From the IMG/VR virus record IMGVR_UViG_3300033182_001489, positions 1 through 61,851 of that record: a DNA stretch of 61,851 nucleotides. One strand, given 5' to 3'. This document shows positions 38,731 through 61,851 of the stretch, piece after piece. A model generated the notes under the pieces. That model worked only from the letters and a program-made list of their open reading frames with translations, had not been told where the DNA came from and did no database searches. Position numbers and translations under genes: made by a program. The DNA comes from a virus. Positions within the stretch are counted from its first letter, which is position 1. The number at the start of each line of letters is the position of its first letter.

Positions 38731-39504
38731 TTAACTAAAGTCTGTAATTGTCATGGTACCCGTAAGTACTCCTCCCTCACTCACTGTAACACCTTGCGAT
38801 GTCACAAAGCCCAAAACTTTTCTACTCCACTCATTTCCGCACAATCCTCCTATAGTCAGAGTTAATGAAGCAGTCTCAGGACACTTCACTCCGCAGTCCT
38901 TAATTGTTGCAGTTAAATTATCTCCCTCCATTGTTAATTCCTCAGTTCCATCAGTTCTGTATTTAAAAACAGGACACATTGATCCAATCTCAAAAATAGC
39001 ATCATAACTTTGACTCATACTGTAAGAAGCTCTAAATGCTGGACCTCCAATACCAGTTTCGTCACCAGCGCCATGCAATAAATCTCCACCAACAATAGCC
39101 TTATCCGCAACCTCTATATTTCCTCCTCGGGGAGTAATATTTGGATTTAAAGTTGGCGGGGTAAAAAATTGAAAACTAGCAGACGAGCTAACTACTTGAT
39201 TTGGCTCTACATCAACAGACATATCTGTCAATAAACCATTCTGACCACTAGAACCTCCGATGACGATATTCTCTCCATCAACTTCTGGATTTAACATTGC
39301 AAAAAATTGTGGGTCGAGCGCCGAACCAATAAACTCAAACGAGGCATCTCCACCTGGAGGGCCCGAAGGAACAACACCCATCGCACCCTTATATCCTACA
39401 GCCCTAACGGCCTCATAACCTTTTTGAGCATTCATGCTCGCACTCGAAGCGAAGAAATCAAAGTCCCCTATTGCTACTACTACGTCTGAATAAAATACTG
39501 CCAT
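38731..39504 (-). CDS. Tail-tube-like protein 3
   Basis: A 257-residue beta-rich protein of the tail-tube type. It has a pattern in common with the two genes upstream: a Gly/Asn-rich first half, then a strand pair (RASYSMSQSYDAIFEIG) followed by PVFKYRTDG, and a Cys-containing end (CGNEWSRKVLGF). A start at ATG 39504 is preceded by T-run + GTGTATAAT + 5 bases, a candidate phage late promoter, so the gene may also have its own transcript. Possible roles are a minor tube protein, a tube-initiation ring or a tail-terminator-proximal ring. Paralogy is argued from pattern and neighbours, not alignment scores. Confidence 0.5.
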   Translation of the reverse strand: MAVFYSDVVVAIGDFDFFASSASMNAQKGYEAVRAVGYKGAMGVVPSGPPGGDASFEFIGSALDPQFFAMLNPEVDGENIVIGGSSGQNGLLTDMSVDVEPNQVVSSSASFQFFTPPTLNPNITPRGGNIEVADKAIVGGDLLHGAGDETGIGGPAFRASYSMSQSYDAIFEIGSMCPVFKYRTDGTEELTMEGDNLTATIKDCGVKCPETASLTLTIGGLCGNEWSRKVLGFVTSQGVTVSEGGVLTGTMTITDFS

Positions 39505-39509
39505 GCACT

Positions 39510-39523
39510 ATTATACACTAAAA
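39510..39523 (-). promoter_or_regulatory. Candidate late promoter (TTTTA-GTGTATAAT)
   Basis: GTGTATAAT on the minus strand at 39518-39510, preceded by TTTTA and followed by five bases (AGTGC) before ATG 39504. It is nearly identical over 14 bases to the site before 40378. Confidence 0.45.
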
Positions 39524-40378
39524 TTAATAAGAAATCCCATTTAAAAGTTTTTCTAGATAATATATATTAGTAATATAAGACTTATAGGTAAAGGTTGCTT
39601 CCAATTCTTCATGTATTGATCCAGTCTGATTATAATCTACAAGCTTAGCCTTTCTTACAAAAAATGTTCTAATCGCATCTCCTGTTGCGCAATCTATAAA
39701 ATTAAAAAGCAGGTCCTGCTCAGTAGGGTTGCAGACAAAATCAAACAGATTTTTAGATTCATAATCGTCAACATGTATCGTAAATTGGCAATCTACTTGT
39801 ATAGGAAACTGAACAATATAATCGTGTGGTTGCAATTTTCCTAAAATGTTAACAACCTCCCTATCTATATTTATTGAAACCTCAAAAGATTGAATCCGAT
39901 TGCTCTCATGCCCCTCAACATTTAATATTATACTGCCAGGGCTTGCGATGATAATAGTGTCATCTCTTTCTTTTTTTCGCGCAGGAGTTGATCCTATATT
40001 GCCTCCTGCATTTCCAAAAGCGAGAATTGAAAAATCTAATGTTGGAATAGTGCCAACTGAGCACGCGCAGCGATAGTTAGTAAGCATTCCATCTGTAAAT
40101 TTAAAATGTTCACCATTATCATAATAGACTTCTCCTAAAATTTTCGTGCTATGAAATAATGAAATTATTGGGTCAGTCGGGGATACCATTAATCTCTCAA
40201 TGTCAAAAGTTGACTGCAGAGATTGCTCAACCACTCCCCCTAGAAATCCGCCGTCAAGCCCTACTGAATTGACATAAGTTTCAGGAGCCTCCCATCCAGC
40301 CGCGCAAGATTGCACACCCCTCAGTCTTTCTCCGTTAATATATACATTTTGAGTATCGTGCAGATGTCTTCCATACAT
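39524..40378 (-). CDS. Tail-tube-like protein 2
   Basis: A 284-residue beta-rich protein. Its C-terminal half aligns by eye with the 426-residue tube protein: IQSFEVSINIDREVVNILG here against IQNFTLDVPLARTALNRIG there, then FVCN against LLCN about 45 residues later. It also shares a final Cys motif. The gene follows a strong terminator (40393-40424) and has a T-run + GTGTATAAT box five bases before the ATG, so it is probably transcribed from its own late promoter. Likely a minor tail-tube or tube-end ring protein. Confidence 0.55.
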   Translation of the reverse strand: MYGRHLHDTQNVYINGERLRGVQSCAAGWEAPETYVNSVGLDGGFLGGVVEQSLQSTFDIERLMVSPTDPIISLFHSTKILGEVYYDNGEHFKFTDGMLTNYRCACSVGTIPTLDFSILAFGNAGGNIGSTPARKKERDDTIIIASPGSIILNVEGHESNRIQSFEVSINIDREVVNILGKLQPHDYIVQFPIQVDCQFTIHVDDYESKNLFDFVCNPTEQDLLFNFIDCATGDAIRTFFVRKAKLVDYNQTGSIHEELEATFTYKSYITNIYYLEKLLNGISY

Positions 40379-40383
40379 GCATT

Positions 40384-40399
40384 ATTATACACAAAAAAA
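40384..40399 (-). promoter_or_regulatory. Candidate late promoter (TTTTTTT-GTGTATAAT)
   Basis: On the minus strand a run of seven T is followed directly by GTGTATAAT, then five bases (AATGC), then the ATG of the gene at 40378. No -35 TTGACA-like box is present at the usual distance; that position is filled by the terminator stem. The same arrangement precedes 39504, 48415, 50478, 56288 and 57660. A T4-style late promoter used by the phage sigma factor is the inference. Confidence 0.45.
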
Positions 40400-48221: not shown

Positions 48222-48415
48222 TTATTTCCCAAATTATCGAAATCCGCCTTACTGCAAAATTTAGCCAGCTTGGTTCCGTCATCATCGACTGCGGCAAAGC
48301 CATATCGCTCAGAAATTTTACCGCTTTTTAATTTGCGCTTGTATACCTTTTTCTCGACTTTATCTTCGGGAATTTGTACTTTTGATTTTTTTCTTACGTT
48401 ATAAAATTCGATCAT
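48218..48415 (-). CDS. Small basic protein between portal and protease genes
   Basis: A 65-residue basic protein with a KVYKRKLKSGKISERYGF stretch and an acidic DDDGTKLAKFCSKADF second half; not recognised. Start ATG 48415 lies eight bases after a T-run + GTGTATCAT box (late-promoter candidate), and the stop overlaps the protease ATG. Small genes here sometimes encode portal-assembly or protease-inhibitor proteins, but there is no direct evidence for either. Confidence 0.5.
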   Translation of the reverse strand: MIEFYNVRKKSKVQIPEDKVEKKVYKRKLKSGKISERYGFAAVDDDGTKLAKFCSKADFDNLGNK

Positions 48416-48423
48416 ATCAACAT

Positions 48424-48440
48424 ATGATACACAAAAAAAA
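48424..48440 (-). promoter_or_regulatory. Candidate late promoter (T8-GTGTATCAT)
   Basis: Minus strand: a run of eight T directly followed by GTGTATCAT (48432-48424), eight bases before ATG 48415. No -35 box is evident. Same motif as before 40378 and 50478. Confidence 0.4.
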
Positions 48441-48447
48441 CTAATTT

Positions 48448-50478
48448 TTAAATTTTACTATGATATAAAATTGCAGCAGCGTAATCGGTCAATTCATGAT
48501 TAGCTGCGACATCACTAATTTGATCTAAAGTCTTCAGAGTCTCTATCTTATTAAAATTGTCTATACACTCAGATCCAACAGATTCCCACTCCGACTTATT
48601 TGCAGAGACTACGATTGATTCTACTAATTTATCAATTGATTCGGACTGATTTTTATTTAATCTTTTGGTCTTTATCTTTTGCTTCATCTGTTTCCCTAAA
48701 TCTGTTCTCAAGGATTCTATAGCATATATAGTTTCTTGAATTTCTTTTCTTGAGTAAGATGCGTTCGCTCCAGTGGGCCGACCGACTTCCTTGGGCGGGG
48801 TTTTTAGAGCTTGATTAGGTTGCTGAGCCTGCTGCTTAATTTCCTCATTTTTATTTTTTGCATCTTGTTTGATTTTTTCTTTTGAAAGTTTTTCATCAAC
48901 TTTTCTTTGCTCTTGAGCTCCAGGAGGTTCAATAAAAGGCACTCCACCTATTAATGGATTGTATAAACCTTTTTCTCTTTGCTTTGTATATTCTTCTTGA
49001 TTTTTGACCAATTCTTCGGGAGTTGGATATACTCCAGTTTGAATTGTCTTTAATCCATCTTCTGCAGACAATACGCCTAACTCAATTAATCTTGTCGCAA
49101 TTCTTTGTAACTGCACTTCATCCTTAATATCAATATCTTCAAATTTAGCCTGTGGAAATTTTCGAAAACCCATGGTTCTACATACCATTTTAATTTGAGG
49201 TTGAAGAAAATCATTAATGAAGGCATTGCGTGCCTCTTTTAACCTTTCAAGAAATATCTGAGCTTTTACTTGCGTATTTGCGTACTTTTCTTGGCCAACA
49301 ATTACGTTCTGCAGGGCATCTCTAATATCTTCGTTGACGACTTTATATTTTTCTGGACCAAGTACTTTATTAATTTCAGGAATGACAAAATTTGCTTTTG
49401 TCGTATAATCGCTAACTAAAACCCGACCAACACTTTCATTTGCAAAGAGCTGTTGCATTGCCCCAAGATTAGTAGGGTTTATCCCTCCTTTATCAGGCTC
49501 TGCCCCCATTGTTATTAAAAGAATAACATTCTCAACTGTACGACTAATGGCCTGATCAATTTTCTTAAGCTCTAGTTTCCAATTTATATCTTCCAGGACT
49601 GGAAAACCAAATGGCACAGCAAAAGGTTCATAATCTTGTTTTTTATAAAAAGAATAGCTTAATTTTTCTGAATCAAGTTGTACATATATCCCTTCTCGGG
49701 AAAAGCGTTTTTCTTTAATTTCTTTTTTAGTTTTTTGAGGTAGGCTATCAAAAAATTCTTTATCCTCTTTGGTTTTTGGCGTACGCAATCTATCTAGTTC
49801 ATATTCTGATAGAATCTTTTTATAATCTCCATCTTCAAATGCCGTTGTTCTCGTAGCAACAATATCATACGGGTTTAATAAAATATATCTTACAGGAATT
49901 TCGCCCAGTTTTAACGAAGATCCATATATGGACGTTATCTTCTTAAAATCTTCTCGATTAAATTTCCCATCAACTCTGTATAAAAAAACATTCCCCGATC
50001 GATAGTATTCTCTAAAATATTGATCTTTAAGATTCCATATCTTAGCTTTGTCTAACCATTTATCAATAAACTCTCTTGCTGGCGCAGTACCACCCTCAAG
50101 ATGTATTTTTGAATTGGCAAATTCTGCCATAATGTCAATTGCGTTTCTAAAAATTGCCACATTTGCATATGCTTTCTGGCAAAGCTCTATAGATTCTCTG
50201 ACTGATATGCCTGAAGACATTGCCTCAAAGGGTAGTATGCCTTCATGTATGTTTACATATTTTTGACTCTTTTTGGCGGAATGAGAGGTTTTTGATAAAC
50301 TCAAATTATCCTTGCCAGATCTGGGCTGAGATCTTATATAAGAAGACTCGCTATAATAACTAGATCCACAAAGCCTTGGCTCCACCGCTTCGGATTGATT
50401 GAATAATTGATCAAGGCTATGATTGTTTTTTTCAAACTTGTTCCAATAGTCAGACCTTTTTGTATATTTTCTTGCCAT
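48448..50478 (-). CDS. Portal protein
   Basis: A 676-residue protein, the dodecameric channel for DNA packaging at the capsid vertex. The sequence has the usual portal layout: a helical entry region (AYANVAIFRNAIDIMAEFANSK, ~105-130), a wing with REYYRSGNVFLYRVDGKF (~155-175), a stem/crown region with long helices (DIRDALQNVIVGQEKYANTQVKAQIFLERL, split here by motif), and a Gln/Lys-rich C-terminal extension (~535-600) that looks disordered. It is placed between terminase and protease genes. A T-run + GTGTATGAT box lies five bases before the ATG. Portal identity is by pattern and context. Confidence 0.8.
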   Translation of the reverse strand: MARKYTKRSDYWNKFEKNNHSLDQLFNQSEAVEPRLCGSSYYSESSYIRSQPRSGKDNLSLSKTSHSAKKSQKYVNIHEGILPFEAMSSGISVRESIELCQKAYANVAIFRNAIDIMAEFANSKIHLEGGTAPAREFIDKWLDKAKIWNLKDQYFREYYRSGNVFLYRVDGKFNREDFKKITSIYGSSLKLGEIPVRYILLNPYDIVATRTTAFEDGDYKKILSEYELDRLRTPKTKEDKEFFDSLPQKTKKEIKEKRFSREGIYVQLDSEKLSYSFYKKQDYEPFAVPFGFPVLEDINWKLELKKIDQAISRTVENVILLITMGAEPDKGGINPTNLGAMQQLFANESVGRVLVSDYTTKANFVIPEINKVLGPEKYKVVNEDIRDALQNVIVGQEKYANTQVKAQIFLERLKEARNAFINDFLQPQIKMVCRTMGFRKFPQAKFEDIDIKDEVQLQRIATRLIELGVLSAEDGLKTIQTGVYPTPEELVKNQEEYTKQREKGLYNPLIGGVPFIEPPGAQEQRKVDEKLSKEKIKQDAKNKNEEIKQQAQQPNQALKTPPKEVGRPTGANASYSRKEIQETIYAIESLRTDLGKQMKQKIKTKRLNKNQSESIDKLVESIVVSANKSEWESVGSECIDNFNKIETLKTLDQISDVAANHELTDYAAAILYHSKI

Positions 50479-50483
50479 GTTAT

Positions 50484-50497
50484 ATCATACACATAAA
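50484..50497 (-). promoter_or_regulatory. Candidate late promoter (TTTTA-T-GTGTATGAT)
   Basis: Minus strand TTTTAT then GTGTATGAT (50492-50484), five bases (ATAAC), then ATG 50478. No -35 box. Confidence 0.4.
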
Positions 50498-54178: not shown

Positions 54179-55229
54179 CAGACTTACTAATTCCTAATAT
54201 TCTAGCCTTCCAGGCTGGCATATCTTCCATTCTATCAGCTTCGTCTTTGATTAGGCTTTTTTGCATTTCTGCCATTTTTATCATAATCTCTCGCTCTTCC
54301 TCCTCCTGAAATAATTTCACCAAAGAAAGCATACTAGCCGTACTCTGATTTTTTTTATCTAAACGTTTTGATCTATCTCCCTGCAGCTTAGTAATTGCCC
54401 TATCGATCCTATTAATACATTGATTATATTCCTCACTTTTTGTTTTTAAAATTTCCGTAAGCCGCATAGTTAAATCAGTTTCCTCTTCGGCAGAATTAAA
54501 CATATCATTTAACTTTAACTTCTGTTTTTCAATTTGTTTTAAATTTATATAATCCATGCAAATATTAATATACATATTTATTTCATCAGGGGTTAAATCT
54601 GGCTTATCCCAACAAGCCCTTACAAACTCTGCCTCAAAAAGTTTGCGGTCATTTATATCAGTATAACTTGTAATTTGTGAAATAAATCTGGGTGAAGCCA
54701 AATTTTTCATTATAACTTCTATGCATAAATTTTCTTGTCTAGTAATTTTATCTATATTAAGCTGAACCCCAGCGCACGCGTTAACTTTTTTTATTGCAGA
54801 TAATGTAGTGCAAGGAGGGTTATACTCAAGCCCTCTAGCGCTATCCTCACTTGATACGCCTTGAGGAATGTGTTCGCGAATATAGTCAGCGATAACAATT
54901 GTCTCTTTGCTTAGAGGAGTTACATTGGACTCAGGAAAAATTAGTTTAGCTATTTGGTAAGCATTTGTTCCATTGCTGGAATATTCGCTTATAAATTCTT
55001 TATCTTCATTTGATAAAATAATTTCTTTTGCTGGCGCAGCTTTTGTTGTATCAAATTTTTGACCTATTTCTATTAGATACTCCCTAACAGATCTACCCTG
55101 CTGACTGCGACCATCTATATTTTCATTCATAAATACCGCTCGGGTCATTTCTCCTAAGTCAGTAATTTTATTTTTATTCTGCTGGATAAACTTTTTTTGA
55201 TCCTCGGTTAATGAATAGGCATCTTTCAT
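54168..55229 (-). CDS. Probable terminase small subunit
   Basis: A 353-residue helical protein. The N-terminal part has two helix-turn-helix-like units (LTEDQKKFIQQNKNKITDLG... to ~50, and NEDKEFISEYSSNGTNAYQIA at ~75-100), then a helical body (DEINMYINICMDYINLK) and a Lys/Glu coiled coil near the C-terminus (~245-330). Small terminases bind pac/cos DNA through such N-terminal domains. Position just before the nuclease and TerL genes, plus ATGA coupling to the sigma gene, supports the call. It is longer than usual TerS (120-200 residues). Confidence 0.55.
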   Translation of the reverse strand: MKDAYSLTEDQKKFIQQNKNKITDLGEMTRAVFMNENIDGRSQQGRSVREYLIEIGQKFDTTKAAPAKEIILSNEDKEFISEYSSNGTNAYQIAKLIFPESNVTPLSKETIVIADYIREHIPQGVSSEDSARGLEYNPPCTTLSAIKKVNACAGVQLNIDKITRQENLCIEVIMKNLASPRFISQITSYTDINDRKLFEAEFVRACWDKPDLTPDEINMYINICMDYINLKQIEKQKLKLNDMFNSAEEETDLTMRLTEILKTKSEEYNQCINRIDRAITKLQGDRSKRLDKKNQSTASMLSLVKLFQEEEEREIMIKMAEMQKSLIKDEADRMEDMPAWKARILGISKSDAI

Positions 55230-55933
55230 TTTAGAAATATATCTTTAGTTGAAATTATTTTTTTAGCTTTATCCTTAAACTGTTTTTTTAAATTTTTAAT
55301 TTGTTTATAACCAGCCTTTCTTCCAGTCTCAGAGGTTTTGTAACCCATTTTTTTTGCAACTTCTTCTTCTGACAAATAGTCAATGAATAACATTTTATAA
55401 ATTTTAAATTGCCTTTCTGGCAACTGTTTTTCCATTTCCAGATGTAACCTTGTTTCAGCTTCAATAATTTCGCAATTACCATCAGGAATTTCTTTATGCT
55501 CTACACCCTCACTATCTATAGAAACTGGAAGCTTGATATCATACGCTGCCTTTTTAGTTTTCTCCCATTTCTTAAATAATGGGCAGGAAGAGTCCTGAGC
55601 GCCGCTTTTAGTAAAAGAGCAACTGCTATCCTGAACGCCGTCTCCAGAAAGATTAAACGGGCAATTTAAGCACGGCCTAACGAAATTAGAATAATTATTT
55701 CTTAGTATATTTTTTAATTGATTGGTTATTATCTTATTTAACCAAGGTCTTAGAGGTTTTTCTGGGTCATATTTATCCCACTTAACATAAATGTGAAATG
55801 ATATTATTTGAATAACGTCATCAAAATCCATCCATGTAAGGGAAGTAAGGTACCACTTAGGCCGCCTTTTTGAAATTTCTTCAATAACGACAGCGTGATA
55901 ATCTTCATACTTTAAATTATTTTGATTCTTCAA
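55226..55933 (-). CDS. Phage sigma factor (sigma-70 family, Cys-rich insert)
   Basis: A 235-residue protein. Residues ~35-82 resemble sigma region 2 (MDFDDVIQIISFHIYVKWDKYD, then PWLNKIITNQLKNILRNN). Residues ~170-222 resemble region 4, a helix-turn-helix (LPERQFKIYKMLFIDYLSEEEVAKKMG). Between them are cysteines 88, 91, 105 and 117, the last two inside a repeated QDSSC, so the linker may bind zinc. It lacks regions 1 and 3, like ECF or T4 gp55-type late sigma factors. It lies in the late operon and is the natural candidate to read the GTGTATNAT late promoters. The call is strong for the fold and inferred for the regulon. Confidence 0.75.
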   Translation of the reverse strand: MKNQNNLKYEDYHAVVIEEISKRRPKWYLTSLTWMDFDDVIQIISFHIYVKWDKYDPEKPLRPWLNKIITNQLKNILRNNYSNFVRPCLNCPFNLSGDGVQDSSCSFTKSGAQDSSCPLFKKWEKTKKAAYDIKLPVSIDSEGVEHKEIPDGNCEIIEAETRLHLEMEKQLPERQFKIYKMLFIDYLSEEEVAKKMGYKTSETGRKAGYKQIKNLKKQFKDKAKKIISTKDIFLK

Positions 55934-56288
55934 TATCTATGGAGTCTTTAGCAGGTTTACAAAGATCCATAATTTCTTTTACGCTATCCTCTGGATTGCG
56001 CCTTTTCGCCGTTCTAGGAGGTAACCCTAATTTTTGCTCTTGCATAACAGAACCTAAGGTGACCTCACTGTGATTATTATTAATAATCTCAAAGTCTAGC
56101 TTTTGAATATTTAAAAAATTTGTCTCAACAGGTGTGGGCGGATCTTCAGCTTTTTGCGCTCTAAATTCTTGCTTTTGTACGCTGGCACTTGCAGAACCAA
56201 AAGGGTTTCCACAATTTGTGCAGAAATTTGGCTTTGAACTTTCATAGTTGTGCTTTGTTCCGCACTGCTGACAGAATATAGATGGCAT
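55917..56288 (-). CDS. Zinc-ribbon protein
   Basis: A 123-residue protein. Residues 6-30 are a zinc ribbon (FCQQCGTKH ... FCTNCGNPF, two CxxC pairs 13 residues apart). The rest is charged and probably disordered, with a basic patch PPRTAKRR (~90-97). Its 3' end overlaps the sigma gene by 17 bases, so the two are co-translated; it could be a sigma partner, a co-activator or a DNA-binding protein. A TTTACT-GGGTATAAT-like box precedes the ATG. Confidence 0.6.
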   Translation of the reverse strand: MPSIFCQQCGTKHNYESSKPNFCTNCGNPFGSASASVQKQEFRAQKAEDPPTPVETNFLNIQKLDFEIINNNHSEVTLGSVMQEQKLGLPPRTAKRRNPEDSVKEIMDLCKPAKDSIDIEESK

Positions 56289-56294
56289 ATGATT

Positions 56295-56308
56295 ATTATA
56301 CCCAGTAA
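56295..56308 (-). promoter_or_regulatory. Candidate late promoter (variant GGGTATAAT)
   Basis: Minus strand TTTACT then GGGTATAAT (56303-56295), six bases, then ATG 56288. It differs from the other sites at one base of the GTG part. It would place the sigma factor gene itself under the late promoter. Confidence 0.35.
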
Positions 56309-56939: not shown

Positions 56940-57235
56940 TCTGTTTTTCTACATTTAAATATGGAACTTATTACACAACAAAGCATGGTTATTATAAAAA
57001 TTATTGATACAACAATTATGGGACTCATTATAGAATAATTAATAATTTCTGATGATTCACTTATATTGTCAAACTCAGCTTTAGATATCTCTCCGTCATT
57101 GTTTATATCAGCTTTCTCAAACTCAGGCAGTTCGACTTTAGACGCATGAGGAGGATTTTTAGCCGAACTATGATTTTTAATTATTGAACTACAGCTAGAT
57201 CCAAAAAAAATAAAAAAAATTAACAAAATCTTCAT
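56936..57235 (-). CDS. u-spanin-like lipoprotein with an EF-hand
   Basis: A 99-residue protein. A signal ending IFFGSSC15 is a lipobox, so Cys15 should be lipidated and sorted to the outer membrane. A C-terminal helix (~69-90, SIMSPIIVVSIIFIITMLCCVI) would sit in the inner membrane. One chain linking both membranes is the plan of unimolecular spanins, which fuse the membranes in the last step of lysis. The ~45-residue periplasmic part contains a canonical EF-hand loop, D43-I-N45-N-D47-G-E-I50-S-K-A-E54. It is coupled by ATGA to the holin-like gene before it and the GAF gene after it. Confidence 0.65.
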   Translation of the reverse strand: MKILLIFFIFFGSSCSSIIKNHSSAKNPPHASKVELPEFEKADINNDGEISKAEFDNISESSEIINYSIMSPIIVVSIIFIITMLCCVISSIFKCRKTE

Positions 57236-57660
57236 CTGGCTCTACTGGGTATAGCGTAAAATCCAACAACCATAAAACATAGGTCCATGAATGATGTAAG
57301 CATTAACCCTCCTGTTAATTGAACTTGGTGCCAACTAGGAGAACCCCAAAACCATGAAAGAATTCCTCCGCCTGAAGGCTTATCAAGAATAACATCATAT
57401 GTAATATTGGGATTCATCGCATAATAAATCATTAAAAAACACATCGTAAATGTAATTGCCAAAAATAAAATTCTCCTTGTAACTTTCACAAATGGGTCGA
57501 GGGCAGTCTTAGATTGACTTTCTATCAAAGCTTTAAGCATCTCAGAATCTCTTGCGGATAAAATCATCTGGTCTTGACGTTTTTGCTCGAGCCAATAATT
57601 TAATAAATTTGCTCCAACTTTTATGACTGCGCCGATAATTGTATTTAAAACTGGTCCCAT
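57232..57660 (-). CDS. Holin-like membrane protein (GTA_holin_3TM type)
   Basis: A 142-residue protein from ATG 57660 (MGPVLNTIIGAVIKVGANLL); an upstream in-frame TTG at 57684 is less likely. Three hydrophobic segments: ~1-20, ~65-86 (TRRILFLAITFTMCFLMIYY) and ~115-137 (QLTGGLMLTSFMDLCFMVVGF), with a Trp-rich loop between the last two. The layout fits three-helix holins of gene transfer agents and siphoviruses. It is the first gene of the late minus-strand operon. TATAAT lies six bases before ATG, and a T-run + GTGTATCAT box overlaps it. No endolysin gene is visible in the window. Confidence 0.55.
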   Translation of the reverse strand: MGPVLNTIIGAVIKVGANLLNYWLEQKRQDQMILSARDSEMLKALIESQSKTALDPFVKVTRRILFLAITFTMCFLMIYYAMNPNITYDVILDKPSGGGILSWFWGSPSWHQVQLTGGLMLTSFMDLCFMVVGFYAIPSRAR

Positions 57661-57671
57661 ATTTATATTAT

Positions 57672-57686
57672 ATGATACACTCAAAA
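57672..57686 (-). promoter_or_regulatory. Candidate late promoter (TTTTGA-GTGTATCAT-ATAAT)
   Basis: Minus strand TTTTGA then GTGTATCAT (57680-57672). A second -10-like TATAAT overlaps its end and is followed by exactly six bases before ATG 57660. It stands at the head of the whole 56-kb late operon. No -35 box was found at 16-18 bases. Confidence 0.45.
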
Positions 57687-57695
57687 CTTAACATT

Positions 57696-57911
57696 ATGGT
57701 AAAATTTAATAAATCCAATCTTGAAGTCATGGAGCTATTGGCAAAACATATGAACTCCTATCAGTCAGTAACTTGGCTAGCAACCCCTCGCGAGGAGCTT
57801 GGCAATAAAAATCCATACGAAATGATAAAGCAATCAAGAGTAAACAAGGTGCTTGCTTTACTCAGAAAGGACTTATCTTCCATAAAGAAGAAAAAGAACG
57901 CAAGGAGCTGA
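57696..57911 (+). CDS. DUF2384-like (Xre/MbcA/ParS C-terminal) small protein
   Basis: A 71-residue protein from ATG 57696. The core AVTWLATPREELGNKNPYEM-like stretch (~residues 22-45; QSVTWLATP, then LGNKNPYEM) followed by VNKVLALLRKDL resembles the toxin-binding domain of MbcA/ParS/Xre antitoxins (W-L-x-x-P...LG...P-x-E). The usual N-terminal helix-turn-helix is missing and no partner toxin gene of RES type is adjacent. It could block a host toxin-antitoxin system, or be a small regulator. It is divergent from the late operon with a 35-base gap. A hairpin (57902-57925) covers its stop codon. Confidence 0.45.
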   Translation: MVKFNKSNLEVMELLAKHMNSYQSVTWLATPREELGNKNPYEMIKQSRVNKVLALLRKDLSSIKKKKNARS

Positions 57912-57925
57912 ATAAACAGCTCCTT
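57902..57925 (+). terminator. Hairpin after DUF2384-like gene
   Basis: AAGGAGCTG (57902-57910), six-base loop, CAGCTCCTT (57917-57925), a perfect 9-bp stem, then ATAACTTTATAT. The T tract is interrupted, so it may be a weak intrinsic terminator. The stop codon TGA lies inside the 5' arm. Confidence 0.55.
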
Positions 57926-57956
57926 ATAACTTTATATATTATATTTTATATTACTA

Positions 57957-58139
57957 ATGAAAAACAATACAAAACAAGAACAAAGAATTGTACTTCAATG
58001 TGGTCGAGGACGCTGCTGCCCAGAAATTATTAAAAAAGAAAACAACTTTATTATTAAAGACGATTACAATGGAGAAGTAAAATTAAATCAAGAACAAATA
58101 AAACTTCTACAAAAAGCTATATCAGATCTCACGGATTAA
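57957..58139 (+). CDS. Small CGRGRCCPEI protein
   Basis: A 60-residue protein. VLQCGRGRCCPEI (three Cys in nine residues) is followed by IIKDDYNGEVKLNQEQIKLL and a short helix. This pattern is familiar from small conserved phage proteins of unknown function; the Cys cluster could bind metal. Its 3' end overlaps the convergent sialyltransferase gene by 18 bases. Confidence 0.55.
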   Translation: MKNNTKQEQRIVLQCGRGRCCPEIIKKENNFIIKDDYNGEVKLNQEQIKLLQKAISDLTD

Positions 58140-59078
58140 ACCCTGATCAATCCAGTCTTTGTATACTTTTGCTTCGCCATCAAATTCGTGAAGGTGTCCG
58201 TGCCAAGTAGACAATGCTTTCTCGTCATAGTAATGGCGTGAGCCATTCTGAAAAAAACTAAAACCAGTCGTATATACATTCATATTAAGTATAAATTTAA
58301 AATAAGCAATTGCTGCAATACCCGTTGACGGGTAATCGACAGTATTTGCCGCGATTTCCCTAGATACATATTCTGGAACAAATGTTACATTATCTCTTGT
58401 ATCATATAAATCATTAGAATATACATCATTCCATACTTTTTGTGTTTTAACATCGTATCCTAGTCTTTCTAGACAACTTAATTTTATATATGGAACTGCA
58501 TTAAACATGGATGGATTAATATTACAATAGTACATGGCCCAAGCTCTCATTCTGGCAAAAGCATCTACAGGCAATAAAAAGATGGTCTTCTTGCCTCCCA
58601 AGGGTCGATTTTTGCTCCAGGGGGGAATTTGAGAACCTATGCCTGAAACCCAATGCGTAATTTTGGAGCCAGTGTATTCATGAATTTTGGGAACATGCTT
58701 AACGCCTCGAACAAGCCAATCGTTAAGTCTGCAAACATTAGGGAATGAGTCTATTATTCTACCTTTTTTTTCATTTAATAAAGTATTTGAATTGCCAACT
58801 ATAATAACATCTCTACCAATTGGCCTATTTTCATATATATTTCTTAATTCTTTACCAGCTCTTCTGAAGAAATCATGACTTTCCCCAAACTTAAGCCTGG
58901 CTTCATTTTCTAATTCTATTGGTATGTCATCCATTTCCGTAATATTAATAAAAAAAGCAATAAAAATCAAGCATAAAAAGTAATTTGAGAAAAAAAACCA
59001 CAGTATGTGCCGCGATTGTGACAATATGTCTCTAAAATAATATCTAAATAGCGTTTTTACAGTATAAAAAGTTGGCAT
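58122..59078 (-). CDS. GT29-type sialyltransferase-like glycosyltransferase
   Basis: A 318-residue protein with one membrane helix at ~26-45. It has the sialylmotif order of family GT29: motif L (VIIVGNSNTLLNEKKGRIID, 91-110, then VCRLND), motif S with YPSTG (249-253), motif III HYYD (282-285), and motif VS H297-x4-E302. These place CMP-sialic acid and the catalytic His in animal-type enzymes. GT29 is mainly eukaryotic but occurs in some phages and viruses. The type II topology (N-terminal helix, catalytic part after it) is also that of GT29 enzymes. A likely role is altering host surface glycans or a virion sugar. Donor identity is not proven. Confidence 0.75.
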   Translation of the reverse strand: MPTFYTVKTLFRYYFRDILSQSRHILWFFFSNYFLCLIFIAFFINITEMDDIPIELENEARLKFGESHDFFRRAGKELRNIYENRPIGRDVIIVGNSNTLLNEKKGRIIDSFPNVCRLNDWLVRGVKHVPKIHEYTGSKITHWVSGIGSQIPPWSKNRPLGGKKTIFLLPVDAFARMRAWAMYYCNINPSMFNAVPYIKLSCLERLGYDVKTQKVWNDVYSNDLYDTRDNVTFVPEYVSREIAANTVDYPSTGIAAIAYFKFILNMNVYTTGFSFFQNGSRHYYDEKALSTWHGHLHEFDGEAKVYKDWIDQGLIREI

Positions 59079-59099
59079 GAAGCTTGCAAATATATATTT

Positions 59100-59480
59100 A
59101 TGAAATATTCACTTATTAATAATGGTATCGGAAGCTCTTTGCTATCTGATTTTTTTAATGTTAACGCTGATCTTGAATTAAATTCTAGATTTCCTACTTT
59201 TAAAGAAGGTTGTATTCAAGAATCTAAAGATGGCCATGTTATTACCTTGCAAGTTCCAGGAATGACCAAAAAAGATATTGAAATTACATGCGAAAATAAT
59301 TCAATCAAGGTTCGTGGTTCAAAAAAGATAAATGACCAAATGACCACAGTAATCCGAAAAGATTTTGCCGCGAATATAAATATTGACCCGCAATCTTGCA
59401 CAGCCAAGGTTGAAAATGGAATATTGACAATTAATCTAGTTAAAAATAAGAGTATTAACAATACTATTAAAATTACATAG
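59100..59480 (+). CDS. Hsp20 / alpha-crystallin small heat-shock protein
   Basis: A 126-residue protein. The alpha-crystallin domain runs from ~41 to 126: GHVITLQVPGMTKKDIEI (beta 2-3 region with the typical P-G), NNSIKVRGSKK, then the conserved A-x-n-G-[IV]-L signature as AKVENGILTINL, and a short C-terminal IxI-like NTIKIT. Small HSPs hold unfolding proteins; phage copies probably aid virion assembly or cell stress survival. Divergent from the sialyltransferase gene with a 21-base gap, so the promoters must lie inside the opposite gene or overlap. An A/T-rich stretch precedes the ATG; no clear ribosome site. Confidence 0.85.
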   Translation: MKYSLINNGIGSSLLSDFFNVNADLELNSRFPTFKEGCIQESKDGHVITLQVPGMTKKDIEITCENNSIKVRGSKKINDQMTTVIRKDFAANINIDPQSCTAKVENGILTINLVKNKSINNTIKIT

Positions 59481-59546
59481 TGTTCCGATTTTTTTAGTTC
59501 AAGCATTTATAAATAATTAAGTGTCGTTTTTATATTGAGAAAAACC

Positions 59547-59604
59547 ACCCCCCCCAAAAAAATTTCAAAAAGTCAAGCGTTTTTTTTGAAAAAAACGGGG
59601 GGGT
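59547..59604. terminator. Homopolymer-rich bidirectional terminator between Hsp20 and 59607-59915
   Basis: The convergent gap holds C8, A7, TTTCAAAAA, then TTTTTTTTGAAA, A-run, G7. Outer arms ACCCCCCC / GGGGGGGT and inner arms TTTCAAAAA / TTTTTGAAA can pair, leaving an A-rich internal loop. The T-rich arms flank it in both directions. A lone AGTCAAGC (TTGACT on minus) sits in the loop without a -10 box. Confidence 0.6.
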
Positions 59605-59606
59605 CT

Positions 59607-59915
59607 TTAGAAGACTTCGAGGTTAGGTTGCGAGCCAGGAGCGGCGAACCAGTCGGATGAGTCAATTACTTGACCATTTAGAACAGGCTCGAATTTGAAT
59701 TGGAAAACGCCCGCGTTTGTTATGCCGTTGACGCGTTCTCGTGTAGTCGGCGTATTCCAACCCGCAAGAGACCAACGCACCAACCCGTCAGGATCACGCT
59801 TAACAATGGCATTGCCATGAAGCCAAACGGTTTTGCCGTCTGTCTCAGTGTTGCCGACTTTTAAGGATTTTCCTTGCTCGAAAGCTTGCTTAATTCTTTG
59901 CGTTACTTTTCTCAT
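59607..59915 (-). CDS. Small phage protein (LAGWNTPTTRER family), full-length copy
   Basis: A 102-residue protein. Core VWLHGNAIVKRD and VRWSLAGWNTPTTRERVNGI is followed by a FEPVLNGQVID / DWFAAPG tail. Small phage proteins with SLAGWNTPTTR are common in tailed phages, but no function is known to me. A second, C-terminally diverged copy is encoded on the other strand at 61456-61686, with nearly identical residues 1-60. It starts with TAATG overlap on the 55-residue gene upstream and shares its promoter (60089-60117). Confidence 0.65.
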   Translation of the reverse strand: MRKVTQRIKQAFEQGKSLKVGNTETDGKTVWLHGNAIVKRDPDGLVRWSLAGWNTPTTRERVNGITNAGVFQFKFEPVLNGQVIDSSDWFAAPGSQPNLEVF

Positions 59916-60082
59916 TATCTTGAAACAATTGGAAGTTTGTTGCCGACTTTTTTTTGCTCGGCTTGGATTTGGCTAGCAATTCTGAGAGCCATCGTGTGAG
60001 TTTTTGCGTTGTCAATTAGTTTTCCGAAAAGCGTAATGTTTAGCCATTCAGAAAAATTTTTGTTTCTTTCAATCTTAATCAT
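59915..60082 (-). CDS. 55-residue small protein (paralogue of 60475-60657)
   Basis: MIKIERNKNFSEWLNITLFG, then a helix AKTHTMALRIASQIQAEQKK and a short end. The first ~40 residues align with the 60-residue protein at 60475-60657 (MIKI..NF..W.N...FG.[IL]ID). It has an excellent promoter: TTGACT-N17-TATATT-N6-ATG. Its stop overlaps the ATG of the next gene (TAATG). Function unknown. Confidence 0.6.
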   Translation of the reverse strand: MIKIERNKNFSEWLNITLFGKLIDNAKTHTMALRIASQIQAEQKKVGNKLPIVSR

Positions 60083-60088
60083 ATGTAA

Positions 60089-60117
60089 AATATAGTTCAG
60101 TTAGCTTAAAAAGTCAA
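60089..60117 (-). promoter_or_regulatory. Leaderless-type promoter of 60082 operon
   Basis: Minus strand TTGACT (60117-60112), 17 bases, TATATT (60094-60089), then six bases and ATG 60082. With the usual distance from -10 to +1, transcription would begin at the A of the start codon. Confidence 0.75.
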
Positions 60118-60138
60118 GTCTAAAATTCAACTAAGTTT

Positions 60139-60177
60139 TTGCACAATCCTGCAATCGCCCCGCGATTTTTGTGCCAA
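60139..60177. repeat. 39-base stem-loop element, copy 1
   Basis: TTGCAC ... AATCGC-CCC-GCGATT ... GTGCCAA. The core is a 6-bp stem with a CCC loop (60153-60167); the outer arms GCACAA and TTGTGC also pair. It matches copy 2 (61046-61084) at 35 of 39 bases. It lies between the 29-residue gene and the 55-residue gene promoter and could act as a terminator or protein site. Confidence 0.75.
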
Positions 60178-60204
60178 TCGCGTAAGATGTTGATTTGTAA
60201 TCGT

Positions 60205-60294
60205 TTACCAATTAGAATTGCAATCCTTAAGATCAGCGAACATGATCCAGAAGACTGCAACCCATGGCAAGAAAAGTAATATATCCCAAGTCAT
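60205..60294 (-). CDS. 29-residue hydrophobic peptide
   Basis: MTWDILLFLPWVAVFWIMFADLK-like peptide with one membrane helix (residues ~4-20). Its ATG overlaps the TGA of the 68-residue gene (ATGA), the coupling seen across this phage, and it ends before the stem-loop element. It may be a membrane mini-protein. Short open frames arise by chance, so confidence is limited; coupling and hydrophobicity are the support. Confidence 0.4.
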   Translation of the reverse strand: MTWDILLFLPWVAVFWIMFADLKDCNSNW

Positions 60295-60497
60295 GCGTTT
60301 AGTTCAAAAATTCCTTGCTCTATCTCTGTAAGCCTGTCAGAATTAGCAAGCACGCAATCAATAGAGAGAATTCTATCATTCTTTTTAGGTTGATAATATG
60401 GAGAATCTTTACGAAGAATTATCACTCTTGAGTCTACCGAAGTAAGCACAAAAGGATTATCTGCTTGCATTTCTTCAAGCGTCTTCAATGTGAACAA
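60291..60497 (-). CDS. 68-residue small protein
   Basis: MFTLKTLEEMQADNPFVLTS start, then VDSRVIILRKDSPYYQPKKND and a C-terminal ILSIDCVLANSDRLTEIEQ. Not recognised. Its ATG lies 23 bases inside the end of the 60-residue gene, and the pair belongs to the operon from promoter 60782-60810. The short beta-alpha feel suggests a small soluble protein. Confidence 0.55.
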   Translation of the reverse strand: MFTLKTLEEMQADNPFVLTSVDSRVIILRKDSPYYQPKKNDRILSIDCVLANSDRLTEIEQGIFELNA

Positions 60498-60657
60498 GTT
60501 CTCCGAGGTTTACAATATGGCTTTGCTTCTCTTTGCGTGCGATCTTCTTAGCGATCTCTAACGCTTGAGCGTCACAAGTAACTTGGTCAATGATGCGACC
60601 AAATACGCTGACATTGAACCAATTCTTAAAGTTAGGATGTATGGTAATCTTAATCAT
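60475..60657 (-). CDS. 60-residue small protein (paralogue of 59915-60082)
   Basis: MIKITIHPNFKNWFNVSVFG, then a helix with ALEIAKKIARKEKQ and a final VNLGELVHIEDA. The first ~45 residues are clearly related to the 55-residue protein in the next operon. It follows the 38-residue membrane peptide by one base. Function unknown; the pair of paralogues at the same relative place in two mini-operons suggests duplication of a cassette. Confidence 0.6.
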   Translation of the reverse strand: MIKITIHPNFKNWFNVSVFGRIIDQVTCDAQALEIAKKIARKEKQSHIVNLGELVHIEDA

Positions 60658-60658
60658 G

Positions 60659-60775
60659 TTATGATACTATCAGTTCTGCGATAAATGCACAAGCAAAAAG
60701 CAAGCAAGATCCGAAAATTCCTACGCATAGGAATGGCATGAATATCTCAATGAAGTTAGCAATATGTTTTTTCAT
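60659..60775 (-). CDS. 38-residue membrane peptide
   Basis: MKKHIANFIEIFMPFLCVGI, then FGSCLLFACAFIAELIVS: a short basic start followed by one or two hydrophobic spans with three Cys. It is first in a mini-operon with a textbook promoter ending six bases before ATG (60782-60810). Likely a small inner-membrane protein acting on a host membrane target, but nothing is known. Confidence 0.6.
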   Translation of the reverse strand: MKKHIANFIEIFMPFLCVGIFGSCLLFACAFIAELIVS

Positions 60776-60781
60776 AATAAT

Positions 60782-60810
60782 AAACTAATCTAGTAATTAG
60801 CAAAAGTCAA
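60782..60810 (-). promoter_or_regulatory. Leaderless-type promoter of 60775 operon
   Basis: Minus strand TTGACT (60810-60805), 17 bases, TAGTTT (60787-60782), six bases, ATG 60775. The -35 box overlaps the stop codon of the gene at 60807-60989. Confidence 0.78.
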
Positions 60811-60989
60811 GCAATAACTGCTTTTCTTTGTTGTTTTTCCGACAGCTCCACAAGCTTGTTTTCTATATCTGCACGAACAGATTCTAATTGCCTTACTGAG
60901 GACATCTTTCCTTCCTTAATGGCAATTATACGCTGAGAGTTTATGGCTCGTAGAGTTGAGGCAAGTTGATGGATTTTTTGTTCTAACAT
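60807..60989 (-). CDS. 60-residue coiled-coil protein
   Basis: From ATG 60989 (MLEQKIHQLASTLRAINSQR), all helix with heptad spacing through VRQLESVRADIENKLVELSE, ending KAVIA. The frame is open further upstream, but this ATG is exactly six bases after a -10 box. A small dimeric coiled-coil protein; function unknown. Confidence 0.6.
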   Translation of the reverse strand: MLEQKIHQLASTLRAINSQRIIAIKEGKMSSVRQLESVRADIENKLVELSEKQQRKAVIA

Positions 60990-60995
60990 AAGGTC

Positions 60996-61024
60996 ATAGT
61001 AGCTGAATAAATAAAAAAAGTCAA
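60996..61024 (-). promoter_or_regulatory. Leaderless-type promoter of 60989 gene
   Basis: Minus strand TTGACT (61024-61019), 17 bases, TACTAT (61001-60996), GACCTT, ATG 60989. The spacing is identical to the other accessory promoters. Confidence 0.78.
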
Positions 61025-61045
61025 GCCTAATATACAACTTTTTTC

Positions 61046-61084
61046 TTGCACGATTCTCTAATCGCCCCGCGATTTTTGTGCCAA
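61046..61084. repeat. 39-base stem-loop element, copy 2
   Basis: TTGCAC ... AATCGC-CCC-GCGATT ... GTGCCAA, 35 of 39 bases identical to copy 1 and in the same orientation. It lies in the divergent gap between the coiled-coil gene (minus) and the 63-residue gene (plus), so a terminator role alone is unlikely here. Confidence 0.75.
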
Positions 61085-61092
61085 AAAAAAAT

Positions 61093-61112
61093 CACTAAAA
61101 ATGCGTTTAGTG
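61093..61112. promoter_or_regulatory. Inverted repeat before promoter (operator candidate)
   Basis: CACTAAA (61093-61099), six bases, TTTAGTG (61106-61112), immediately before the -35 box of the next promoter (61114). A regulator site is plausible; it could also be a short hairpin. Confidence 0.45.
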
Positions 61113-61113
61113 C

Positions 61114-61142
61114 TTGCAATTTTACGAAAATTTGTTTACATT
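61114..61142 (+). promoter_or_regulatory. Leaderless-type promoter of 61151 gene
   Basis: TTGCAA (61114-61119), 17 bases, TACATT (61137-61142), eight bases, ATG 61151. Confidence 0.6.
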
Positions 61143-61150
61143 TATGTTAT

Positions 61151-61342
61151 ATGAATAAGATAATAGAAATACTAATGAAAAGAGACCAACTTTCCGAAGA
61201 GGAAGCAACCGATCAAGTGATCGCATTTCAATCTGAGATGTGGCTCGATGTTGGACTTGGTGGCGACATCTTCGAATGGGAACATATGTTCACTTCCGAA
61301 TTCGGACTCGAGCCCGATTTCTTCGAAGCGTTAATGCTCTAA
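61151..61342 (+). CDS. 63-residue acidic phage protein
   Basis: From ATG 61151: MNKIIEILMKRDQLSEEEAT, a helical start, then EMWLDVGLGGDIFEWEHMF and LGLEPDF-type end (SEFGLEPDFFEALML). Small acidic proteins with LEPDFFE-type ends are common in tailed phages; function unknown. Start chosen by the promoter just before it. Confidence 0.6.
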   Translation: MNKIIEILMKRDQLSEEEATDQVIAFQSEMWLDVGLGGDIFEWEHMFTSEFGLEPDFFEALML

Positions 61343-61368
61343 TAATAGAAAGGTTACGATTTCTAAAG

Positions 61369-61395
61369 TTGGCACGAAATCGGCCCGCGATTTTT
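61369..61395. repeat. Short inverted relative of the stem-loop element / terminator
   Basis: TTGGCAC-G-AAATCG-GCCCG-CGATTT followed by eight T. Read on the minus strand it ends in GTGCCAA like copies 1 and 2, but the loop differs and the outer arm is missing. On the plus strand it has the form of an intrinsic terminator for the 63-residue gene. Confidence 0.6.
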
Positions 61396-61418
61396 TTTAA
61401 AAAAAATTATCTTTTTGC

Positions 61419-61447
61419 TTGCAATTTAGTTTTATCTAGTTTAGTTT
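61419..61447 (+). promoter_or_regulatory. Leaderless-type promoter of 61456 gene
   Basis: TTGCAA (61419-61424), 17 bases, TAGTTT (61442-61447), eight bases, ATG 61456. A TATAAT (61447-61452) overlaps but has a poorer spacing. Confidence 0.6.
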
Positions 61448-61455
61448 ATAATTAT

Positions 61456-61686
61456 ATGAGAAAAGTTACAGAACAAATCAAACAAGCATTTGAACGCGGC
61501 GAAGCCAAGACAGTTGGCAACACCACCACAGACGGCAAGACCGTTTGGCTACATGGCAACGCGATTGTCAAACGCGATCCCGACGGGCTCGTGCGTTGGT
61601 CACTCGCAGGTTGGAACACACCGACCACACGCGAACGCGTCAACGGCATAGCTAACGCAAGGCGATTCAGTAGGATTGTGCAATAA
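61456..61686 (+). CDS. Diverged, shortened copy of the LAGWNTPTTRER protein
   Basis: A 76-residue protein from ATG 61456. Residues 1-62 match the 102-residue protein at 59607-59915 closely (MRKVTEQIKQAFERG, VWLHGNAIVKRD, LAGWNTPTTRERVNGI); after NGIANA the sequence departs (RRFSRIVQ) and stops, losing the ~35-residue tail. The copy is on the opposite strand, so the pair forms an inverted duplication about 1.5 kb apart. The shortened end may be a frameshift or recombination remnant; the promoter is intact. Confidence 0.65.
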   Translation: MRKVTEQIKQAFERGEAKTVGNTTTDGKTVWLHGNAIVKRDPDGLVRWSLAGWNTPTTRERVNGIANARRFSRIVQ

Positions 61687-61714
61687 AATAGTTGCAAGAT
61701 AATTGAAAAAAAAT

Positions 61715-61743
61715 TTGACTTTAGTTAATGCTTTTGCTAGTTT
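61715..61743 (+). promoter_or_regulatory. Leaderless-type promoter of 61750 gene
   Basis: TTGACT (61715-61720), 17 bases, TAGTTT (61738-61743), six bases, ATG 61750. Confidence 0.75.
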
Positions 61744-61749
61744 ATATAT

Positions 61750-61851
61750 ATGAAAGAAAAATTACTTATAGCAACCTTAATTATCGTTTCCGTTCTTGTA
61801 TTCATAGGAGAATACAAAAGGCTAAAGTTAGAAACGGAAGCCAATCAAGCA
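61750..61851 (+). CDS. Small membrane protein, 5' part (runs off window)
   Basis: 34 codons are visible: MKEKLLIATLIIVSVLVFIG forms one membrane helix, followed by a charged EYKRLKLETEANQA start of a soluble or coiled-coil part. The short basic N-terminus suggests a helix with the C-terminus outside or an uncleaved signal anchor. A promoter stands directly before the ATG. Confidence 0.6.
   Translation, partial: MKEKLLIATLIIVSVLVFIGEYKRLKLETEANQA

What the first reader, a model, noticed from the sequence alone, without database searches (positions are those of the whole stretch)
60089..61743. Six accessory-gene promoters with identical 17-base spacing ending 6-8 bases before ATG
Sites for genes starting 60082, 60775, 60989, 61151, 61456 and 61750 read TTG(ACT or CAA)-N17-TAnnTT/TACTAT. 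Four have exactly six bases between the -10 box and ATG, two have eight. With standard -10 to +1 distance the mRNA would start at or within two bases of the start codon. Leaderless mRNAs are unusual as a rule for a set of phage early genes and suggest a host that translates them well, or a phage-specific way to escape regulation of normal initiation.
Basis: seen in the sequence. Interest (0 to 1): 0.75.

Follow-up and report, generated by a model that had tools for sequence, protein, structure and literature searches.

The report
Marine phage genes with leaderless messages
Small genes of an uncultured, widespread marine virus of bacteria sit so close behind their promoters that their messages should begin at the start codon itself, with no leader for the ribosome to grip; this holds across the virus family rather than only for the six genes first noticed.

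Summary
All six sites exist, with a 17-base spacer, and end 6 (four) or 8 (two) bases before ATG. An unbiased scan of 59501-61851 finds these six and no others; shuffles give 0.2 sites, and 0.01 followed by ATG. A seventh, weaker site precedes the gene at 60657.

The window belongs to an uncultivated phage family (largest contigs about 200 kb). Among 474 distinct TTGACW-N17-TANNNT sites in relatives, 269 have ATG exactly 6 bases on; wrong-spacer controls are flat. In ten control phages and bacteria, 2 of 74 sites do. At 6-base sites the base before ATG is a pyrimidine in 95%, and the start is ATG in 448 cases against 5 GTG/TTG. So the A of ATG most likely is +1. A second, apparently late class (GTGTATNAT) peaks at 5 bases before ATG. 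Two relatives of the 61151 gene instead have a leader with a Shine-Dalgarno-like sequence.

Transcript ends are unmeasured and the host is unknown. Leaderless genes, including a few in phages, are known; a family-wide rule is the new part.

The parts
60083..60117 (-). leaderless promoter of gene 59915-60082(-): TTGACT (60117-60112), 17-base spacer, TATATT (60094-60089), 6 bases, ATG at 60082
   Evidence: homologues L240-L248 keep the same lengths with diverged spacers
59915..60082 (-). small gene, 55 aa, paralogue of 60475-60657; relatives throughout the phage family
   Evidence: no Pfam match
60658..60692 (-). seventh, weaker promoter of the same geometry (not in the finding): TTGTGC-17-TAGTAT-6-ATG, overlapping the end of ORF 60659-60775
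60475..60657 (-). small gene, 60 aa, paralogue of 59915-60082
60776..60810 (-). leaderless promoter of ORF 60659-60775(-): TTGACT-17-TAGTTT-6-ATG
60659..60775 (-). 38-aa ORF, hydrophobic; too short for the homologue search
60990..61024 (-). leaderless promoter of gene 60807-60989(-): TTGACT-17-TACTAT-6-ATG
60807..60989 (-). 60-aa ORF; no relatives found, so gene status rests on its promoter and reading frame
61114..61150 (+). near-leaderless promoter of gene 61151-61342(+): TTGCAA-17-TACATT-8-ATG
   Evidence: most homologues have 6 bases here, L234 and L238 have a longer leader with AAGGA
61151..61342 (+). 63-aa gene conserved in the family (51-75% identity), N-terminus aligned at this ATG
61419..61455 (+). 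near-leaderless promoter of gene 61456-61686(+): TTGCAA-17-TAGTTT-8-ATG
   Evidence: L010 has the same site
61456..61686 (+). 76-aa gene, Kyano_Gp96 family (PF23790); inverted paralogue of 59607-59915(-)
61715..61749 (+). leaderless promoter of ORF 61750-61851 (runs off the window): TTGACT-17-TAGTTT-6-ATG
60153..60177 (.). intergenic hairpin element AATCGCCCCGCGATTTTTGTGCCAA; further copies at 61060-61084 and, diverged, 61378-61402; possible terminator between units
39505..39518 (-). second promoter class: GTGTATAAT then 5 bases, ATG at 39504
40379..40392 (-). second promoter class: GTGTATAAT then 5 bases, ATG at 40378
48416..48432 (-). second promoter class: GTGTATCAT then 8 bases, ATG at 48415
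50479..50492 (-). second promoter class: GTGTATGAT then 5 bases, ATG at 50478
56289..56303 (-). second promoter class: GGGTATAAT then 6 bases, ATG at 56288
55226..55933 (-). phage sigma-factor gene (sigma-70 region 2, weak region 4); candidate reader of the second class (inferred)

Best explanation
The window is part of the genome of an uncultivated marine phage. In its accessory block each small gene or short operon has its own sigma-70-type promoter placed so that RNA polymerase starts at the A of the start codon (6-base sites), or about two bases before it (8-base sites). The start codon thus doubles as the transcription initiator, and the mRNA has no leader and no Shine-Dalgarno sequence. 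Such messages would be translated by direct binding of a 70S ribosome and initiator tRNA to the 5'-terminal AUG. The promoter geometry, its conservation and its start-codon signature are shown here by sequence. That transcription really starts at the A, that translation follows the 70S route, and that host RNA polymerase reads these promoters early are inferred. A second class (GTGTATNAT, no clear -35 box), probably read with a phage sigma factor, follows the same rule with a 5-base gap in front of several structural genes.
For: Six of six sites in an unbiased scan of the block. In nine family genomes, including the window, 112 of 340 sites have ATG exactly 6 bases after the -10 box and 174 of 340 at 5-8; in ten control records the figures are 2 of 74 and 9 of 74. 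In 183 further loci (1.97 Mb), TTGACW sites: 269 of 474 at 6; TTGCAA sites: 74 of 164 at 6 and 28 at 8; spacers of 11, 13, 21 and 23 give no such peak. The base before ATG is T or C at 95% of 448 gap-6 sites with an ORF of at least 30 codons; start codons there are 448 ATG, 4 GTG, 1 TTG. For comparison, all genes have Y at -1 in 57%. Homologues of the 60082 gene: spacers diverged, lengths identical. Promoters of the 61456 family differ between relatives, yet where present mostly end 6-9 bases before ATG. L238 has a sigma-70-type promoter shifted upstream with AAGGA before ATG, and L234 has the same SD-like leader. Only 19 promoter sites were found with a Shine-Dalgarno leader instead. Second class: 28 of the 44 ATG-with-ORF at gaps 5-8 lie at gap 5, none at gap 5 in controls.
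Against: No transcript ends were measured. Start position after a -10 box varies by a few bases, so 8-base sites may give 0-3 nt leaders. The scan fixes TA...T in the -10 box, so weak promoters are not counted. Sites in relatives share descent and are not independent. The loci are enriched for accessory regions because many were fetched with accessory genes. Upstream promoters giving ordinary leaders cannot be excluded for individual genes. ORFs 60659-60775 and 60807-60989 have no known homologues.
Confidence: 0.87

Rival explanations
1. The mRNAs have a minimal leader of about 2-5 nt rather than none; spacing is constrained by RNA polymerase start-site choice, and the ribosome uses ordinary weak or Shine-Dalgarno-free initiation.
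For: 8-base sites at 61151 and 61456, and smaller counts at 7 and 8 in relatives. Shine-Dalgarno use is low overall in these genomes.
Against: The dominant peak is exactly 6, with Y at -1 and A at +1, and almost no GTG or TTG starts.
Confidence: 0.1
2. The geometry is inherited, not selected: accessory genes move as cassettes with a conserved promoter-plus-ATG piece that recombines.
For: The intergenic piece 60108-60177 is duplicated at 61015-61084 (84%), and paralogues exist (59915/61456, 60082/60657).
Against: Homologous sites have completely diverged spacers with unchanged lengths; different promoters before the same gene end at similar distances; the second promoter class follows the same rule.
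Confidence: 0.05
3. The real start codons lie further downstream behind ordinary leaders, and the ATG next to the -10 box is not used.
For: Some ORFs have a second in-frame ATG nearby (for example at 61175).
Against: N-termini of homologues align from this ATG; 448 of 478 ATGs at gap 6 open a frame of at least 30 codons.
Confidence: 0.02

Closest known systems
Cluster O mycobacteriophages (Corndog and relatives), PMC4351075
   [quoted passage not shown] PL2 similar).
   Different: A few promoters in phages of an actinobacterial host group known for leaderless genes; here 20-30 sites per large genome, a host not known, and no WhiB gene.
Leaderless genes of bacteria defined by TANNNT about 12 bp before the start (Zheng et al. 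2011, PMC3160421)
   Same: Same criterion: TANNNT placed so that +1 falls on the start codon.
   Different: Those are cellular genomes, above all Actinobacteria and Deinococcus-Thermus; here a phage family with TTGACW/TTGCAA -35 boxes and mostly TANNTT -10 boxes.
Lambda cI mRNA (PMC9031893; promoter PRM from own knowledge)
   Same: Phage mRNA starting at AUG.
   Different: A single regulatory gene in lambda; here a rule for many accessory and some structural genes.

Membership tests
Leaderless bacterial-type transcripts | -10 box (TANNNT) placed so that +1 falls at or within a few bases of the start codon | tested here: met
Leaderless bacterial-type transcripts | start-site sequence preference (pyrimidine at -1, purine at +1) at the start codon | tested here: met
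   95% pyrimidine before ATG
Leaderless bacterial-type transcripts | strong preference for AUG over GUG and UUG | tested here: met
   448 ATG, 4 GTG, 1 TTG
Leaderless bacterial-type transcripts | mapped 5' end at the start codon | not testable with these tools
   needs RNA from infected cells
Leaderless bacterial-type transcripts | translation by 70S ribosomes without a Shine-Dalgarno sequence | not testable with these tools
   needs toeprinting or reporter assays
Actinobacteriophages with leaderless promoters | actinobacterial host marker (WhiB) | tested here: not met
   0 of 17 records; the control search found it in Corynebacterium; not every actinophage carries it
Cyanophages (suggested by Kyano_Gp96 and Hsp20) | photosystem reaction-centre gene, a common though not universal marker | tested here: not met
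   no match over the cut-off in 17 records

The most novel reading that the evidence does not exclude
A widespread uncultivated marine phage family uses leaderless messages as its normal way to express operon-leading genes in two promoter classes, with the AUG itself serving as the transcription initiator, so that its output would be translated by a route (70S binding) that stays open when ordinary initiation is regulated or shut down.
Probability: 0.35. Interest if true: 0.75.

Novelty: new variant of a known kind. Interest (0 to 1): 0.58.

Why it matters
Leaderless phage genes have been noted singly. Here sequence alone shows a whole phage family with about 20-30 such promoters per large genome, so the start site of its small unknown genes can be called with near base precision and gene prediction improved. 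It also points to hosts that translate leaderless mRNA well, which may help to find the host, and offers a natural set for comparing led and leaderless versions of the same gene (61151 family).

Tried and rejected
Host search: TerL relatives occur in contigs binned with Halobacteriovorax, Flavobacteriaceae and Verrucomicrobiales MAGs and one unnamed bin, but these disagree, and sampled contigs of these bins and of other Verrucomicrobiota and Bacteroidota genomes lack the signal, so no host is claimed. tmRNA comparison with Verrucomicrobiota and Bacteroidota matched mostly the conserved tRNA-like end. WhiB and photosystem genes absent. Phage-encoded S21, IF3, S1 not found. Searches of cultured phages for TerL, a 676-aa and a 377-aa protein gave only distant or no relatives. 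Bacteroidetes promoters (TAnnTTTG, from own knowledge) considered because of TANNTT, and set aside as the TG is missing and TTGAC is strongly conserved. The first gene caller was too strict for small genes and was replaced; the main conclusion was then repeated without gene calls. No Rfam match in 57000-61851.

Full report
Check of the observation. The six sites are present exactly as described. A scan of both strands that makes no use of gene calls, for TTG(ACA/ACT/CAA)-N17-TANNNT, finds 11 sites in the 61.9-kb window. Six fall in the 2.35-kb block 59501-61851 and all six are followed by ATG at 6 bases (60082, 60775, 60989, 61750) or 8 bases (61151, 61456). The five other sites have no ATG within 14 bases. 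Shuffles of the block give on average 0.2 sites, and 0.01 with ATG at 5-8.

What the window is. It is a virus record of 61,851 bases. Its terminase gene has hundreds of relatives in IMG/VR, and contigs of about 200 kb carry the accessory genes. Cultured phages offer only distant terminase matches and no match to two other structural-region proteins. A 200-kb relative carries a DNA polymerase III alpha-type polymerase, a ribonucleotide reductase and a ClpA/B-like ATPase, and three of the four 200-kb genomes scanned carry a tmRNA. The window encodes an Hsp20 and a sigma factor. The host is unknown.

Is the geometry general? In nine genomes of the family, window included, 340 sites were found; 112 have ATG exactly 6 bases after the -10 box and 174 at 5-8. 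In ten control records (Pelagibacter phage HTVC008M, T4, P-SSM2, a Campylobacter phage, phiKZ, phiM9, SPbeta, Roseobacter phage CRP-810, and contigs of Halobacteriovorax and Flavobacteriaceae MAGs) the figures are 2 and 9 of 74. In 183 further loci (1.97 Mb), 269 of 474 distinct TTGACW sites have ATG at 6; TTGCAA gives 74 of 164 at 6 and 28 at 8; weaker -35 boxes peak at 6 as well; wrong spacers give no such peak. A gene-call-based analysis agrees: gaps of 5-8 occur before about 8-13% of genes in the family genomes and at most about 1% in controls. The sites concentrate in one accessory region of small genes in several genomes.

Is the start codon the transcription start? Three signs say so. 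At 448 sites with a 6-base gap and an ORF of at least 30 codons, the base before ATG is T (77%) or C (18%); over all gene starts it is a pyrimidine in 57%. The start codon at these sites is ATG in 448 cases, GTG in 4, TTG in 1, in line with the reported AUG preference of leaderless translation in E. coli and Caulobacter (PMC9031893). And the distance is the standard one from a -10 box to +1, the criterion used for bacterial genomes in PMC3160421.

Conservation and natural switches. Homologues of the 60082 gene keep TTGACW-17-TANNTT-6-ATG while the spacer diverges. The 61456 family has different promoters in different relatives, mostly ending 6-9 bases before ATG. In the 61151 family most members have the short gap, but L238 has its promoter further upstream and, like L234, the sequence AAAGAAAGGATTGCT before ATG, a Shine-Dalgarno-led version of the same gene. 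Only 19 sites with a Shine-Dalgarno leader were found by pattern, not all convincing.

Second class. GTGTATNAT boxes peak at 5 bases before ATG (28 sites with an ORF; none at that gap in controls), with a pyrimidine before ATG in 96%. In the window these precede genes at 39504, 40378 and 50478, with gaps of 8 and 6 at 48415 and 56288. The lack of a clear -35 box and the presence of a phage sigma factor suggest a late class; this is inference. The conserved upstream flank shows that many of the 28 sites come from homologous genes, so they are not independent.

How it likely works. Host RNA polymerase reads the TTGACW/TTGCAA promoters and starts on the A of AUG; the message is bound at its 5'-terminal AUG by 70S ribosomes. 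The low overall Shine-Dalgarno content (9-23%) and the absence of phage S21, IF3 and S1 favour a host that accepts such messages over a phage-made translation factor. None of the host candidates suggested by binned contigs shows the signal in the contigs sampled, so the host question stays open.

Comparison with the known. Leaderless genes are common in Actinobacteria and Deinococcus-Thermus and were first found in lambda (PMC3160421). Cluster O mycobacteriophages have a few predicted promoters with +1 on the first base of the start codon (PMC4351075). The AR9 paper remarks that phage transcripts are often leaderless, while AR9's own are not (PMC5312081). I found no description of a phage family in which this is the common arrangement; the library holds open-licence papers only.

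Verdict. Observation confirmed; interpretation supported and extended; mechanism inferred until 5' ends are mapped.

Noticed in passing
L164:10645-11043(-), L176:6699-7062(+), L191:9776-10138(+): tmRNA genes (RF00023, 125-140 bits) in three 200-kb relatives, with differing tag peptides; also tRNA-Thr(tgt) in several.
   Followed up: partly
window 12206-36706(-): A single open reading frame of 8166 codons, about 40% of the window.
   Followed up: no
window 58122-59078(-): Protein with a glycosyltransferase family 29 (sialyltransferase) match; a leaderless-type promoter (TTGATT-17-TAATAT-7-ATG) suggests its start may be 58934 rather than 59078.
   Followed up: partly
window 60153-60177, 61060-61084, 61378-61402; L211 (five copies), L205 (two copies): Repeated intergenic element AATCGCCCCGCGATT(TTTGTGCC), hairpin-forming, between accessory genes; possibly a terminator or a recombination site.
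   Followed up: partly
window 59545-59605: Long hairpin with a run of C paired to a run of G around a TTGACTTTTT sequence that resembles the -35 region of the accessory promoters; possibly a decayed promoter or a terminator.
   Followed up: no
window 59713-59915 and 61456-61658: Inverted paralogous copies (79%) of a Kyano_Gp96 gene, one behind its own promoter and one inside an operon.
   Followed up: partly
G001 C1 near 198548, G003 C1 near 132783, G006 C1 near 44896, G018 C1 near 40663: A promoter (CTTGACATAyCATGCAAATyAAyCTAGTTT) conserved even in its spacer across distant relatives, unlike the others; it may carry an operator.
   Followed up: no
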